From assembly GCA_016201205.1 (NCBI GenBank), contig JACQDF010000056.1, forward strand, positions 1 through 64,000: a stretch of DNA of 64,000 nucleotides. The letters are read 5' to 3'. The notes beneath the pieces were generated by a model. It searched no databases, was not told the origin of the DNA, and worked only from the letters and a program-made list of their open reading frames with translations. Below, piece after piece: positions 17,038-54,289 of the stretch. Position 1 is the first letter of the stretch, and each line of letters begins with the position of its first letter. The translations under genes and the position numbers were made by a program. This stretch comes from Acidobacteriota bacterium. GTDB taxonomy: Bacteria > Acidobacteriota > Terriglobia > Bryobacterales > Bryobacteraceae.

Positions 17038-17927
17038 ACTGCGAGTCGGCCAGAAAAGACTTTTCTCTGTACTTGTATGGCGAGCTGGAACCCGGCCAGG
17101 AAGAGGCTCTCGAGCAGCACCTGGACGGCTGCGAGGCATGCCGGCGGGAGCTCGAGCTCGAGCGCGCAATGCATCGCGCGATGGACCGGCGGGAACACCA
17201 GTTCTCGCCTGAATTCCAGGCGGCGTGCCGCCGCGAGTTGCTCTCGCGGATCGCCGCCGAAGCGCTGCCTCGCGGCTGGATGGATCGAGCAAAGCAATGG
17301 GCGCGCCGGAACGTGTATTGGCCGGCCATTCTGCGTCCCGCGGCGGCGTTGGCCCTGGTGGCTCTTGGCTTCTTCGGCGCCAGAGTCTGGGAAGCGGCGA
17401 GAGCCTCGAGCGAGCCGGCGTCGTGGCGTGTGCGGAACCTGGCGCCGAATCCCGAGGGCGGCGTCCAGCTCGAGCTCGAGCAGGTGCGGCAGCGCACGAT
17501 GACGGGCCGGGTGGACGATGAAAAGATTCGCCAGATGCTGCTGGCTGCCGCTGCCGATCCCACCGATGACGGCCTGCGGGCGCGGACGATGGACGTCTTG
17601 AAGGACCGCTGTGAGCGCGCCGAAGTTCGCCATGCTCTCTTAAGGGCCTTCCAGCACGATCCGAACCCGCGGGTGCGGCTGAAGGCGCTCGAAGGGCTGA
17701 GACCTTTCGTCCGGGATCCGGAAATGCGCAAAGCGTTGTCCACCGTCGTGCTGGCGGACGACAATGCCGGGGTGCGCACCCAGGCGGTCGATCTGCTGGT
17801 CGAGAACATGCAATCCGAGATGATCGGCACGCTTCAGGAATTGATCGTTCGCGAGAGCAACCCCTACATCCGGCAGAAGAGCTTGCATGCTTTGCGCCAG
17901 ATGAACGCCTCGGTGGAGACGTTCTGA
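17034..17927 (+). CDS. Anti-sigma factor with zf-HC2 domain and HEAT-like repeats
   Basis: Residues 1-45 form a zf-HC2 anti-sigma domain with the HxxxCxxC motif (HLDGCEAC) after an initial cysteine at residue 3. One transmembrane helix follows at about residues 100-120 (AILRPAAALALVALGFFGA). The extracytoplasmic half is alpha-helical, with at least three HEAT-like repeats (for example HDPNPRVRLKALEGLRPF and ADDNAGVRTQAVDLLVE). Coupled by ATGA to the ECF sigma gene, it should hold that sigma inactive at the membrane. A HEAT-repeat sensor half is less usual than a plain anti-sigma and could bind a periplasmic partner. Confidence 0.85.
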   Translation: MNCESARKDFSLYLYGELEPGQEEALEQHLDGCEACRRELELERAMHRAMDRREHQFSPEFQAACRRELLSRIAAEALPRGWMDRAKQWARRNVYWPAILRPAAALALVALGFFGARVWEAARASSEPASWRVRNLAPNPEGGVQLELEQVRQRTMTGRVDDEKIRQMLLAAAADPTDDGLRARTMDVLKDRCERAEVRHALLRAFQHDPNPRVRLKALEGLRPFVRDPEMRKALSTVVLADDNAGVRTQAVDLLVENMQSEMIGTLQELIVRESNPYIRQKSLHALRQMNASVETF

Positions 17928-17992
17928 GCGCACAGGCCGCGGCGGCCCCCATGTTGACCAATCAAACGCCGCCGCCGCGGTCCGTTGTGCGC
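17928..17992. repeat. Intergenic hairpin repeat, family H copy A
   Basis: Begins directly after the anti-sigma stop. The outer arms GCGCACA and TGTGCGC pair, and the inner arms CCGCGGCGGC and GCCGCCGCGG pair, around a loop rich in A and T. It shares the outline GCxCAGGCCG...CG(T)TGTGCG with copies at 41577, 44491 and 54053. The position, tight against a 3' end, suggests it acts as or near a transcription terminator or mRNA stabiliser. Confidence 0.6.
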
Positions 17993-18065
17993 GTTGGACT
18001 GGAGACGCGGTGACGTTTTTGGCGTTCCCTCGTCTACCAGGATGAGGACCGGGCCAGCCGTTCGG

Positions 18066-18176
18066 GACCGCTTGCTGACGCGCGCGGCTCAGCAACGGCT
18101 TGGACCGCTTGCTGACGCGCGTGGCTGAGCAACGGCTTGGACCGCTTGCTGACGCGCGCGGCTCGGCAACGGCTTG
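18066..18176. repeat. Triple 37-bp tandem palindromic repeat, family P
   Basis: Three consecutive 37-bp units (18066-18102, 18103-18139, 18140-18176), each starting GACCGCTTGCTGACGCGC and ending CAACGGCTTG with two or three substitutions between copies. Each unit is an imperfect palindrome, CCGCTTGCTGA pairing with the reverse of its own second half. Single or partial copies lie at 32154, 34603 and 41520. It occupies the gap between the anti-sigma gene and the PDZ gene. It is not a CRISPR: there are no spacers. Confidence 0.8.
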
Positions 18177-18218
18177 GCGCCGCGGGGCGCGGCCTCTGTG
18201 CTTTTCAGGAAGGACGTT

Positions 18219-41576: not shown

Positions 41577-41661
41577 AGCTCGCACAGGCCGGGCCGGCCT
41601 CCATACCGGTGAGGAAATCGCCGGCTGCGGGTAGGCCCGGCGCGTTGTGCGAGCGAGTTCC
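41577..41661. repeat. Intergenic hairpin repeat, family H copy B
   Basis: The outer arms GCTCGCACA and TGTGCGAGC pair. Inner arms GGCCGGGCC and GGCCCGGC pair around a central CCGGTGAGG segment. It is nearly identical to the copy at 54053-54135. It lies between the convergent malQ and murB genes and ends GAGTTCCT, the same sequence that marks the IS110 insertion in copy C. Confidence 0.75.
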
Positions 41662-42627
41662 TCATAACCCGACATATTGCACCTCTTCTTCCAGTGCGAG
41701 GCCGAAGCGCTCGAGCACGCGTTTTTTCAATTCCTCAATCACCGTCTTCAAGTCTTCCGCCGTACCTGCCCCCGTGTTGTAAATCAGATTGGCATGATAC
41801 GGGGCCACTTCGATATCCCCGCGGCGCATGCCTTTGGCGCCGACCTGTTCGAGAAACCACGCGGAAGGCGCCTTGCCTTCGCGTATCACCGGCGGCGGAA
41901 CTTGTGCCTTCACGGCTCCGGCAAGGTCCTCGATCAGCAGGTTCTTGAAGATGCTGCCCGCGCACCGCATCGTGGGCGGATACTTGGCGTTGCGGATCTC
42001 GAGGATTCTGGCCGCCTGCTCGCGCAGGTGGTTGCACTCACCGGAAGGCAGCGTCAGTTCGGCGGAAACAATGACCCGATCCTTGTGCCGCTTGAATGCG
42101 CTCTCGCGATAGCCGAATTCGCAGGCGGAGTTGTCGCAGGACAGCGCCTGGCCGCCGCCAACGAAGCGCACACGCTCGATGAACTCCGAGATCGAATGCC
42201 CGTAAGCGCCGGCGTTGCCGTAGATGGCGGCGCCCACCCATCCCGGAATGCCGGTCATGGTGTGCAGGCCTTCGAGCCCCTGCTCGATGCTGAAATCCAC
42301 AAGCTGCTGCAACACGGCGCCCGCCTCGACCACAATGCGGTTGCCGTCGCCGCGGATGGCATGGGCCGTGTAGCGCAGCACGATTCCGGGATAGCCGGCC
42401 TCGGAAACGATGAGATTGGTGCCGGCGCCGATCACGGTGTGGGGCAGGCCGCTTTGCCGCGCGATCCGCAGAGCATCGAGAAACGCCGCCTCGTCGCCGG
42501 CGTCGGCCAGGATGGCCGCCGGGCCGCCGATTGCGAAACGGGTGTACTCGCTCAGGGGAGCGTTCTTTCGCAGCGCGAGTTTTCCAAGAGCAGCGAGCGC
42601 ATCCAATGCGTCTTCGGTGGCAGTCAC
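41662..42627 (-). CDS. murB: UDP-N-acetylenolpyruvoylglucosamine reductase
   Basis: A 321-residue FAD-dependent enzyme of peptidoglycan precursor synthesis. FAD-binding features are RFAIGGPAAILADAGDE, then VIGAGTNLIVSE, and LHTMTGIPGWVGAAIYGNAGAYGHSI. The catalytic serine region is AGSIFKNL. The C-terminal KVxVE-like region is present (FLEQVGAKGMRRGDIEVAPYHANLIYN). The start is a GTG at 42627. It is an isolated murB away from the mur cluster. Confidence 0.95.
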   Translation of the reverse strand: MTATEDALDALAALGKLALRKNAPLSEYTRFAIGGPAAILADAGDEAAFLDALRIARQSGLPHTVIGAGTNLIVSEAGYPGIVLRYTAHAIRGDGNRIVVEAGAVLQQLVDFSIEQGLEGLHTMTGIPGWVGAAIYGNAGAYGHSISEFIERVRFVGGGQALSCDNSACEFGYRESAFKRHKDRVIVSAELTLPSGECNHLREQAARILEIRNAKYPPTMRCAGSIFKNLLIEDLAGAVKAQVPPPVIREGKAPSAWFLEQVGAKGMRRGDIEVAPYHANLIYNTGAGTAEDLKTVIEELKKRVLERFGLALEEEVQYVGL

Positions 42628-44468: not shown

Positions 44469-44490
44469 CCCTCCGGAAGTGTAAACAAAG

Positions 44491-44575
44491 CGCAAAGGCC
44501 GCGGGGCGCGGCGCGATAGCCTTGAGGAACACCGGAGTGTCCCTGCCGCGGGCGCGGTCCGTTTTGCGAGTTCCT
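44491..44575. repeat. Intergenic hairpin repeat, family H copy C, IS110 target
   Basis: The outer arms CGCAAA and TTTGCG and inner arms GGCCGCGGGGCGCGGC and GCCGCGGGCGCGGTCC pair. It lies 22 bp after the isomerase-like gene. Its right edge, GAGTTCCT, is shared with copies B and D and is exactly where the IS110 element begins. Confidence 0.65.
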
Positions 44576-44581
44576 TAGAAG

Positions 44582-44836
44582 CATCGCGCCCGCGTGGCGG
44601 GACCAACGGGAAAGGAACTTGGCTTGGCTCTGCGGACTGACGGACACTGGAAAGACTCAGGCAGCGGAAGTAGGCCGGAATTACAGTGGTGCTTTCAAAC
44701 CCGTTTAGAAGCTTGGTCCCAAGTCCCGTGCACCAAACAGTGGTTACGGTCCGGAGCACCATCCCGGACTGATTCCGATTAGAAGAGTGCCTTCCTTTGC
44801 GCGGCTTGGCCGGTTGCCGGAGCGAAAGGAATTGGA
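44582..44836 (+). ncRNA. Presumed bridge RNA region of the IS110 element
   Basis: IS110-group elements encode a structured bridge RNA in the noncoding segment before the transposase. It carries guide segments for target and donor DNA. This 255-bp segment has no open frame of interest. It contains AAGGAAC (44612-44618), complementary to the left half of the core (GTTCCTT), and TTAGAAGC (44705-44712) and TTAGAAG (44779-44785), identical to its right half. The mix of complementary and identical guides is what the bridge mechanism predicts. Exact ends and structure are not determined. Confidence 0.6.
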
Positions 44837-46270
44837 GTGTCCAAGAAAACACGGCAGCAAGGGGTACGTGGCAGCCGAGGCCCCGTACCAGCCAAAAGTA
44901 AGAAGAACAAACAACCGAACCGGCCGGGGCAACCGGATCGCCCGGTGTTTGAGCCCAATGCGGCTGGCATCGATATCGGAGCCAGAGAGATCTTCGTGGC
45001 CGTACCGCCGGAGCGGGATCCCGATCCCGTCCGGAAGTGCGAAACGTTCACCGGGGATCTGCACCAGATGGCCGAATGGCTGGTCAGTTGTGGCATCACC
45101 ACAGCGGCGATGGAGTCTACCGGAGTGTATTGGATTCCGGTGTACGACGTGCTGGAGCAACACGGAATCAAGCCGTGTTTGGTGAACCCGCGGAACATGA
45201 AGAACGTGCCGGGAAAGCGCACCGATTTCCATGAATGCCAGTGGATCCAGCATCTGCATTCGCTGGGCCTGCTGCATTCGGCGTTCCGGCCAGATGGGGA
45301 GGTCTGTGCAGTACGGTCGCTGATGCGGCATCGCAACGACCTGGTCATGATGGCGAGCGAGCACATCCAGCATATGCAAAAGGCTCTCACTCAGATGAAC
45401 GTGCAGTTCCAACACGTCATCAGCGACATCACAGGCTTGACAGGGTTGGCGATCCTGGATGCCATCCTGGCTGGCGAGCGGGATGCGGCGGTGTTGGCCA
45501 AGTTGCGCGATCCACGCATCACGGCCGATGAAGAGACGATTCGGAAATCGCTGGAGGGAACCTGGCGAGCGGAACATATCCTGGCTCTCAAACAAAGGTT
45601 GTCGCTCTATCGAAGCCATCGTGACTTGATCGACGAGTGCGACAAGGAAATCGAGAAGCTGGTCGCGGCCTTCGAGCCAAGAGTGGATCCCGACGAAAAG
45701 CCAATGCCGGAAGATCGCAAGCAGAAGCAGCGCCGGCGCAAGAAGAAGAGCGGCAGTCCGGACTTCGACATGCGAACCGAAGCGTACAAGCTATTCGGCG
45801 TGGATCTGACCCAGATCCCCGGGCTGATGATGCTGGTGTTCATGCTGTTCAGCGAAGTAGGGCGAGACATGTCGCGGTGGCCTACGGCGGCGCACTTCGT
45901 TTCCTGGTTGGGATTATGTCCGGACAACGATATCAGCGGCGGCAAGGTGCTGTGGCGCGGGGCGCGGCGGACAAAGAACCGTGCGGGAGCACTGTTCCGG
46001 CTGGCGGCGCATTCGCTGCACCGCGACCCATCGCCGATGGGGAACTATCTGCGGCGGATGAAAGCGAAATTGGGGCCAGCGGCGGCAACGACGGCGACGG
46101 CACACAAGATCGCGATCGTCTTTTACACGATGGTGAAGAATCAGGTCGAATACGATGCTTCACTTTGGGCGCAACGCGATCAGAAGCGCGAGAAGCGACT
46201 CGAAGCCAGGCTCCGCAAGCAAGCCGCACAGCGCGGCTACAAATTGGTGCCGGTGGAGGCCGCCGCGTAA
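44837..46270 (+). CDS. IS110-family transposase (bridge recombinase)
   Basis: A 477-residue recombinase with an N-terminal RuvC-like DEDD domain and a C-terminal Transposase_20 domain. Acidic residues are D46 (AGIDIGAR), E93 (AMESTGVYW), D130 and E133 (GKRTDFHECQW), so the fourth position is Glu instead of the commoner Asp. The catalytic serine is expected in SGGK of DNDISGGKVLWRG at about residue 375. A basic linker (KQKQRRRKKK) precedes the second half. No frameshift or stop is present, so it could be active. The start is GTG 44837 after AAAGGA. Confidence 0.93.
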   Translation: MSKKTRQQGVRGSRGPVPAKSKKNKQPNRPGQPDRPVFEPNAAGIDIGAREIFVAVPPERDPDPVRKCETFTGDLHQMAEWLVSCGITTAAMESTGVYWIPVYDVLEQHGIKPCLVNPRNMKNVPGKRTDFHECQWIQHLHSLGLLHSAFRPDGEVCAVRSLMRHRNDLVMMASEHIQHMQKALTQMNVQFQHVISDITGLTGLAILDAILAGERDAAVLAKLRDPRITADEETIRKSLEGTWRAEHILALKQRLSLYRSHRDLIDECDKEIEKLVAAFEPRVDPDEKPMPEDRKQKQRRRKKKSGSPDFDMRTEAYKLFGVDLTQIPGLMMLVFMLFSEVGRDMSRWPTAAHFVSWLGLCPDNDISGGKVLWRGARRTKNRAGALFRLAAHSLHRDPSPMGNYLRRMKAKLGPAAATTATAHKIAIVFYTMVKNQVEYDASLWAQRDQKREKRLEARLRKQAAQRGYKLVPVEAAA

Positions 46271-46329
46271 TCTATTGACAACACAGCGTCGCCGTAGAGG
46301 TTCCTTAGAAGCCGGACAAGAAGTGAGTT

Positions 46330-54052: not shown

Positions 54053-54135
54053 AGCTCGCACAGGCCGGGCCGGCCTCATACCGGTGAAGAACTCGCCGGC
54101 TGCCAGGCCCGGCGCGTTGTGCGAGCGAGTTCCCT
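54053..54135. repeat. Intergenic hairpin repeat, family H copy D
   Basis: Nearly identical to copy B at 41577-41661: GCTCGCACAGGCCGGGCCGG at one end, CGCGTTGTGCGAGCGAGTTC at the other, with pairing arms. It lies 3' of the toxin gene. The rest of the gap to 54290 has no gene. Confidence 0.75.
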
Positions 54136-54289
54136 GGAAGCTTGATCAACTCGACTGCATGCACTACCGAGGCAGCTCCCCCTGCCCGGCACGTTGAACC
54201 ACCACGTTGCGCGGGTTGTGACTTTTTCCGCAACCCGTGCTACGAAGGCGATGGAAGGACCATTCACGTTATAGTGTGGGTTCATAGCT

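What the first reader, a model, noticed from the sequence alone, without database searches (positions are those of the whole stretch)
44570..46313. Apparently intact IS110 element inserted at the edge of a palindromic repeat
The 13-bp sequence GTTCCTTAGAAGC bounds the element on both sides. Its left part, GAGTTCCT, is the conserved right end of a dispersed hairpin family that exists without the insertion at 41577 and 54053. So copy C supplied the target. Some IS110-family elements are known to target REP-like palindromes through their bridge RNA; here the native repeat, the filled site and two unfilled homologous sites are all visible in one window.
Basis: partly seen in the sequence, partly recalled or inferred. 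Interest (0 to 1): 0.75.

Follow-up and report, generated by a model that had tools for sequence, protein, structure and literature searches.

The report
RNA-guided IS110 beside its miniature relative
A bacterial jumping gene that appears to find its landing site with a guide RNA sits at the end of a short hairpin repeat; the hairpin looks like a stripped-down relative of such jumping genes rather than ordinary host DNA, which suggests a guide RNA that sends the element to the ends of its own kind.

Summary
The IS110 element is real and looks intact: a 477-aa recombinase, a conserved structured RNA in the left end, and both ends present. The hairpin to its left is real too. (1) The 13-bp repeat is not a target duplication: donor end and target share 12 bp by sequence, and the crossover core is most likely AG at the right end of that stretch. 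The loop-1 guide matches the left junction (8 of 9 elements perfectly) and the loop-2 guide matches the right junction (11 of 11). (2) The hairpins at 41577 and 54053 belong to another repeat family; copy C's homologues are 45 further matches elsewhere in the genome. (3) The hairpins are best read as miniature, non-autonomous IS110-type elements: they end in the element's right end, carry the same subterminal repeat, and follow an AG at sites resembling the guide; in four genes, joining the flanks restores a Pfam domain. The left ends of the window's own hairpin families give no significant match, so this remains an inference. Here target and donor guides are identical, so the element targets right ends of its own kind, which accounts for head-to-tail arrays. 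IS110 insertion into REPs is known; this self-targeting hairpin system is a new variant.

The parts
44491..44581 (+). Hairpin repeat, family A (91 bp here, 93 bp in most copies listed); core AG of its own insertion at 44489-44490; its right end GTTCCTTAGAAG was the target of the IS110 element
   Evidence: folded as DNA z -1.95, 10 of 200 shuffles as good
44570..44582 (+). Left 13-mer GTTCCTTAGAAGC: right end of the hairpin, core AG at 44580-44581, plus the first base of the IS left end
   Evidence: core placed by guide-junction comparison and by the second copy's right flank
44582..46311 (+). IS110-type element, from the first base after the left core to the end of the right core (1730 bp)
   Evidence: relatives with the same ends
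44589..44601 (+). Small hairpin in the left end, CCCGC-GTG-GCGGG, kept in relatives (90% of cells paired, one pair with two-sided changes)
44612..44618 (+). Left subterminal inverted repeat AAGGAAC
   Evidence: AGGAAC 31-35 bp inside the core in 10 of 10 elements; flanking bases complement the right copy in 10 of 10 and 8 of 10
44658..44811 (+). Conserved part of the putative bridge RNA
   Evidence: 19 of 44 pairs (whole left-end alignment) with two-sided changes, shuffled mean 6.5, 0 of 500 shuffles as high, 2-6 in slid controls; no Rfam match
44705..44711 (+). Putative left target guide TTAGAAG (loop 1), same sense as the target's top strand
   Evidence: position
44779..44785 (+). Putative left donor guide TTAGAAG (loop 2), identical to the target guide
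   Evidence: position
44837..46270 (+). IS110 recombinase, 477 aa, GTG start; PF01548 (1.6e-17) and PF02371 (2.4e-08); fourth acidic position is Glu in this clade
46300..46306 (+). Right subterminal inverted repeat GTTCCTT, followed by the rest of the donor end and core AG at 46310-46311
41579..41668 (+). Hairpin repeat, family B (core AG 41577-41578; right end degenerate, TCATAAC)
   Evidence: z -4.13
54055..54140 (+). Hairpin repeat, family B (core AG 54053-54054; right end CTGGAAG)
   Evidence: z -4.22

Best explanation
This is an autonomous IS110-type element that recombines as a circle through a two-nucleotide AG core, guided by an RNA from its left end. Loop 1 reads the target and loop 2 reads the element's own right end. 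In this copy both loops carry TTAGAAG, so the preferred target is a sequence equal to the element's own right end. That sequence is presented by short hairpin repeats, which are best explained as miniature non-autonomous IS110-type elements: no recombinase gene, a left part with the subterminal AGGAAC repeat, and a right end GTTCCTTAGAAG. They would be mobilised in trans by a recombinase and RNA of this kind. Here the element landed behind such a miniature, giving hairpin-AG-IS-AG. Shown by sequence: the ends, the guide-junction agreement, the covarying RNA, the AG before hairpins, their guide-like flanks, and restoration of genes when flanks are joined. Inferred: the circular intermediate, RNA expression, and trans-mobilisation by this particular recombinase.
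For: Guides: the loop-2 7-mer equals the right-junction 7-mer at 77 of 77 positions in 11 elements (shuffled mean 60.3, p 1e-5). The loop-1 7-mer equals the left-junction 7-mer at 56 of 63 positions in 9 elements (8 perfect; shuffled 38.9, p 2e-5). Crossed comparisons are not significant, p 0.63 and 0.24. RNA: 19 of 44 pairs with two-sided changes, 0 of 500 shuffles reach that, slid structures give 2-6 (RNAalifold's own count is 18). Ends: the bases flanking the subterminal repeats complement each other in 10 of 10 (p 0.003) and 8 of 10 (p 0.011) elements. Hairpins as elements: in 40 solitary own-genome copies, A at -2 in 40 of 40; the left flank matches TTCCTYAGAAG at 8 or more of 11 positions in 17 of 40, against 1.2% of 7136 AG sites in the window, p 5e-5. 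At 25 cleaned sites in other genomes: A at -2 in 25 of 25 and 8 or more of 11 in 10 of 25, against 1.9% of 15,618 AG sites. Joined flanks of four insertions in genes, picked by eye from the sites, align across the joint to AhpC-TSA, CoA_transf_3, LysE and OMP_b-brl_4, 4 of 4 joined fragments submitted. Family C units match an IS left-end profile end to end (26.3 and 24.4 bits; 24.4 and 23.5 with the window element left out); best of 3000 shuffled units 8.5 bits. Arrays with joints at AG: A-A, A-C, C-C, A-IS, IS-hairpin-hairpin and hairpin-IS, hairpin-IS-hairpin-hairpin, hairpin-IS.
Against: The left ends of families A and B, the ones in this window, do not appear among the profile matches (3 of 15 units tested, E up to 10); only the position of AGGAAC, a hairpin and the right end are shared. 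Of 32 solitary family-A right ends only 11 are exactly TTAGAAG. Many solitary hairpins sit at targets that do not match TTAGAAG, so other guides, older elements or decay must be assumed. The per-copy match of left flank with own right end is not significant (p 0.058). Three genomes with pattern hits (G003 with 23, G004 with 2, G059 with 1) show no match to this recombinase at 1e-20. The second IS in L062 matches its left junction at 6 of 7 only. The right-hand guides of both loops were not identified. The compared windows were chosen after seeing the sequences. All is inference from draft assemblies; no reads were seen.
Confidence: 0.77

Rival explanations
1. The hairpins are ordinary host REP-type repeats (spread by a Y1/RAYT transposase), and the IS110 element simply targets them, as IS621 and ISPpu9 do.
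For: IS110 insertion into REPs is documented (passages, abstract starts). Three Y1_Tnp (PF01797) matches exist in the genome.
Against: In the loci fetched around the three Y1 genes (1.8-3.2 kb each) units of families A, B and C give nothing better than pieces of 12-15 bp at E 0.019. The hairpins lack the GTRG tag that I recall for RAYT REPs. They carry IS110-type right ends after an AG, and their own flanks look like IS110 targets. Family C contains a clear IS left end.
Confidence: 0.13
2. The 13-bp repeat is a target-site duplication made by a conventional cut-and-paste or replicative transposition.
For: The element is bounded by 13 identical bases.
Against: Family-A copies without any IS already end in GTTCCTTAGAAG. 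In relatives the left and right 7-mers differ from each other (L061 TGGAGAG and TCAAAAG, L067 TCACTAG and TTGGAAG), which a duplication cannot give. The second copy shares only 12 of the 13 bp.
Confidence: 0.03
3. The core is CT inside CCTTAG (as in IS621), loop 1 is the donor loop, and the right-junction 7-mer belongs to the target.
For: CT is the core used for IS621, and CT precedes or opens the 7-mer at most left junctions.
Against: The right-junction stretch is the conserved one and continues into the conserved right end, while the flank beyond AG differs from copy to copy (by eye). Left-junction 7-mers vary more. L066 has GT, not CT, at the left junction. Before 40 solitary hairpins AG is invariant, while at the place of CT only 20 have C and 19 have T. 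The right-end 7-mer tends to travel with the hairpin: 11 of 32 TTAGAAG and 4 of 32 TCAGAAG.
Confidence: 0.05
4. The hairpins were once moved by IS110, but the arrays and the IS-hairpin pairing grew by homologous recombination between repeats.
For: Units are about 87-94% identical to copy C and often tandem.
Against: Recombination does not easily explain exact joints at AG between unlike units (A-C, A-IS, and hairpin-IS in three further genomes).
Confidence: 0.1

Closest known systems
IS621 (IS110 group, E. coli) and its bridge RNA
   Same: PF01548 plus PF02371 recombinase, long left non-coding end with a two-loop RNA, insertion at a palindromic repeat, two-base core (PMC11208160: passages and sections 5 and 12 seen)
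   Different: Core AG instead of CT; subterminal repeats of 7 bp or more instead of 2-3; target and donor guides identical; the palindromic repeat shares ends with the element
IS1111 group
   Same: Subterminal inverted repeats of 7 bp or more at asymmetric distances from the ends (seekRNA paper PMC11187229, passages seen; length range)
   Different: The RNA lies before the gene, not after it; the left repeat is 31-35 bp from the core rather than about 7
ISPpu9, ISPpu10 and ISPa11 in Pseudomonas REPs (Tobes and Pareja 2006, PMC1525189, passages seen)
   Same: IS110-family elements whose copies in the genomes examined all lie in palindromic repeats (7/7, 7/7, 6/6); a passage, cut in my view, also mentions similarity to the circle junction for other members of the family
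   Different: In the passages seen the repeats are REPs, not units with the IS ends
IS1111 in QMITE2 of Coxiella burnetii (PMC5896051, passages seen)
   Same: An element of this superfamily inserted in a miniature element (20 of 21 annotated copies in one strain, according to the paper)
   Different: QMITE2 has terminal repeats and 7-11 nt duplications; in the passages seen it is not presented as a derivative of IS1111
Rickettsia palindromic elements (review PMC10969869, passages seen)
   Same: Short palindromic elements that form in-frame fusions in protein genes
   Different: About 150 bp; no mobilising enzyme was named in the passages seen

Membership tests
IS110 family (recombinase) | N-terminal PF01548 and C-terminal PF02371 domains | tested here: met
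   both above the curated cut-offs
IS110 family (recombinase) | DEDD catalytic tetrad and conserved serine | tested here: inconclusive
   D46, E93, D130 and S367 invariant in 6 sequences; the fourth acidic position is Glu in 4 of 6 (window, L061, L065, L068), Asp in L050 and L052. Which residues form the tetrad is recalled, not from a call
IS110 group | Long left non-coding end with a structured RNA carrying target and donor guides | tested here: met
   expression not testable here
IS110 group | Subterminal repeats absent or only 2-3 bp | tested here: not met
   at least 7 bp in 10 of 10 elements, 8 or more in 8 of 10
IS1111 group | Subterminal inverted repeats of 7-17 bp | tested here: met
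IS1111 group | Guide RNA in the right non-coding end | tested here: not met
   39 bp lie between stop codon and right core in the window element
RAYT-type REP (hairpin) | GTRG tag and a RAYT gene beside the repeats | tested here: not met
   for three Y1 loci with fetched flanks (tag recalled, not from a call)
Miniature IS110-type element (hairpin) | Short, no recombinase gene, shares both ends with an autonomous element | tested here: inconclusive
   Right end present in families A, B, C and those of other genomes; left end significant for C, moderate for G059, G105 and G102b units (12.6, 12.2, 9.2 bits), not found for A and B
Miniature IS110-type element (hairpin) | Inserted after the core at a target like that of the family | tested here: met

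The most novel reading that the evidence does not exclude
An RNA-guided transposition system in which the bridge RNA has converged on self-targeting (target guide equals donor guide), so that element and miniatures build head-to-tail arrays on each other's right ends. The same kind of RNA and recombinase mobilises in trans a swarm of hairpin parasites, SINE-like, some of which sit inside protein genes in frame (31 extra codons per 93-bp unit). This would be a mechanistic candidate for in-frame palindromic elements.
Probability: 0.4. Interest if true: 0.82.

Novelty: new variant of a known kind. Interest (0 to 1): 0.62.

Why it matters
Bridge-RNA recombinases are being developed for genome editing, but I found no account of non-autonomous IS110-family relatives in the papers searched (an open-access library only, listings and abstract starts, with passages of a few papers). 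If the hairpins are such relatives, minimal donors of about 93 bp exist in nature and show what a donor really needs. It would also mean that some REP-like repeats hit by IS110 elements are miniatures of the element's own kind. A natural guide set with identical target and donor loops is a ready test of how these systems avoid, or exploit, self-integration.

Tried and rejected
Rejected: target-site duplication, CT core, and RAYT-REP origin (see rivals). The idea that family A and B copies carry the IS left end as sequence was tested by profile and not supported; I keep only shared position and architecture. A per-copy match of left flank and own right end was tested and is not significant (p 0.058). 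The idea that unit length is always a multiple of 3 fails: 86, 88, 91, 94 and 95 bp units exist. An attempt to show the empty CoA-transferase site in genus mates found no hit at 1e-20 in the 11 other genomes. Rfam found nothing, and neither did the PDB sequence search. The right-hand target and donor guides were looked for by eye and not found. Contig C159 ends 11 bp into a left end behind a family-A hairpin, but IS and family C share those bases, so it is not counted as a second insertion.

Rows dropped. L063 and L056 lack a left junction; L050 was kept in a fixed frame in which it scores 0 of 7, although shifted by 2 nt it matches; the second IS of L062 (6 of 7) was seen later and is not in that test. 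One search lists only copies fitting two fixed patterns (41 of family A, 8 of B) and misses some copies. Of these 49 rows one search uses 40: 7 were left out because another unit lies directly to the left, 1 as the same site on two contigs (L023), 1 at a contig end (L026); 6 of its 40 rows come from three tandem arrays. One search left out 15 of 58 rows as tandem; one search left out a further 18 of 43 as duplicates or tandem remnants.

Association test: 6 of 13 genomes with a close IS relative have 2 or more pattern hits, against 2 of 99 others (Fisher 1.8e-5, table filled by me). 11 of the 13 were chosen for having the IS, some genomes may be in both sets, and relatedness is not corrected, so it is only a hint.

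Full report
What is there. The window is part of contig C79 of a 7.0-Mb draft genome in 392 contigs. Of 13 related loci found by the protein, 12 are in records labelled Acidobacteria or groups within it, 1 in a Bacteroidetes MAG. The IS110 ORF at 44837-46270 is intact and has both family domains. GTTCCTTAGAAGC bounds it at 44570 and 46300. A second copy's right end opens contig C315; no second complete copy was found.

The hairpin to the left. The repeat ending at 44581 is one of 46 matches in the genome at E below 0.001 (only 40 of 122 first-look candidates were scored, so this is a minimum). Units are mostly 93 bp, several in tandem. Of 41 family-A units listed, 31 are followed by unrelated sequence, 8 by another unit or an IS-like left end (the window's included), and 2 lie at contig ends. 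The repeats at 41577 and 54053 are a second family with the same layout but a different sequence. A third family (C, period 128 bp, contigs C132 and C217) begins with the IS left end itself: it matches a left-end profile over its whole length at 26.3 and 24.4 bits, against at most 8.5 bits in 3000 shuffled units and 3.5 bits in the masked window.

Where the crossover lies. I compared the left-end RNA with the element's own junctions in relatives found (junctions). The 7-mer in loop 2 equals the right-junction 7-mer in 11 of 11 elements, and the 7-mer in loop 1 equals the left-junction 7-mer in 8 of 9; crossed comparisons are at chance. The right-junction stretch is conserved and continues into the element, while the flank beyond AG differs from copy to copy. 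So loop 2 most likely reads the donor, loop 1 the target, and the core is AG at 44580-44581 and 46310-46311. The windows compared were chosen by me after seeing the sequences; the shuffles control for composition, not for that choice. The RNA has a conserved structure: 19 of 44 pairs show a two-sided change, 0 of 500 shuffles reach that (mean 6.5) and structures slid by 1-3 columns give 2-6. The order of guides (bottom-strand match first) agrees with what the seekRNA paper says for the IS110 type (passage).

Self-targeting. In the window element, L064 and L065, target and donor guide are the same 7-mer. Of 10 elements with a visible left junction, 4 follow a hairpin directly (window, L064, L065, second IS of L062). 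All 4 have the target guide TTAGAAG or TCAGAAG, against 1 of the other 6 (Fisher p 0.024, table filled by me). L065 lies in the array hairpin-IS-hairpin-hairpin, all head to tail. In L062 the first IS is followed by two hairpins, and the second IS follows a hairpin; there the donor guide reads TCAAAAG, so that element is not self-targeting in the strict sense.

The hairpins behave like IS110-type elements. In 40 solitary copies of families A and B the two bases before the unit are AG in 40 of 40 (the G is given by the search pattern for family A, the A is not). The 11 bases before the unit resemble TTCCTYAGAAG: 17 of 40 reach 8 or more matches, 1.2% of window AG sites do. Position -12 carries no information (0.02 bits), so these look like sites, not decayed neighbours. 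In other genomes 25 cleaned sites give the same picture. Joining the flanks of four copies that lie in genes, picked by eye, gives proteins that align across the joint to AhpC-TSA, CoA_transf_3, LysE and OMP_b-brl_4 (three further fragments, from right flanks only, gave no match). In the CoA-transferase and the LysE gene the 93-bp unit (two units in LysE) keeps the frame open; in the thioredoxin-like and outer-membrane genes 94- and 95-bp units bring a stop. The pattern GAGGAAC-N20-50-GTTCCTNARAAG has 26 hits in the own genome, 45 in 6 of 11 genomes of IS relatives, and hits in 5 of 100 other relatives (23, 2, 1, 1, 1; two of the single hits, G027 and G061, do not look like these units). The reversed control gave 1 hit in all (G091).

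Variant features. The element has the IS110 layout (RNA before the gene) but subterminal inverted repeats of at least 7 bp, as in IS1111; the bases flanking them complement each other between the ends in 10 of 10 and 8 of 10 elements. The fourth catalytic acid is Glu in this clade.

What is not shown. No circle, transcript or transposition was observed. Families A and B lack a left-end match to the IS profile. Which recombinase moved the old copies is unknown: G003 has 23 pattern hits and no match to this recombinase at 1e-20. The right-hand guides are unassigned.

Literature. I saw sections 5 and 12 and passages of PMC11208160, and passages of PMC11187229, PMC1525189, PMC5896051, PMC10969869, PMC3718332 and PMC11578231. 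IS110 elements in REPs, and IS1111 in a miniature element, are known. I saw no account of miniature IS110-family elements in the listings, which cover an open-access library only.

Verdict. The element and its site are real. The pairing of an RNA-guided element with hairpins bearing its kind of ends, and a guide RNA aimed at those ends, is a new variant of a known kind.

Noticed in passing
L036 (C357), L039 (C124), L027 (C160): Hairpin units lie inside or near the start of reading frames and leave them open, adding 31 residues per unit; LysE carries two in tandem. This resembles Rickettsia palindromic elements.
   Followed up: partly
window 44837-46270 and L061, L065, L068: The fourth acidic residue of the DEDD tetrad is Glu (TDFHECQW or TDWHECQW) in this clade, Asp in L050 and L052.
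   Followed up: partly
window 17927-18204: A further hairpin of this kind (AGCGCACAGGCCGCGG...CGCGGTCCGTTGTGCGCG, no recognisable right end), then a roughly 35-bp sequence in three copies and an inverted piece of a family-A left part.
   Followed up: partly
L017 (C279:1555-1641): An orphan fragment, 93% identical to the loop-1 part of the bridge RNA, beside a sequence reading GAGTTCCTTACC.
   Followed up: no
window 46275-46280: TTGACA just after the stop codon in the right end; could be the -35 box of a circle-junction promoter like that reported for IS621.
   Followed up: no
L068 right flank: Right of that IS lies a second left-end-like sequence (GGGGCCATACCGGGGAGGTAC), as if it had inserted in front of an older element or miniature.
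   Followed up: no
G003: Same-genus genome with 23 pattern hits of a family-A-like hairpin but no match to this recombinase at 1e-20.
   Followed up: partly
L074, L075, L076: Three Y1_Tnp (PF01797) loci in the own genome, one with a stop inside; no hairpin of families A, B or C beside them in the fetched flanks.
   Followed up: partly
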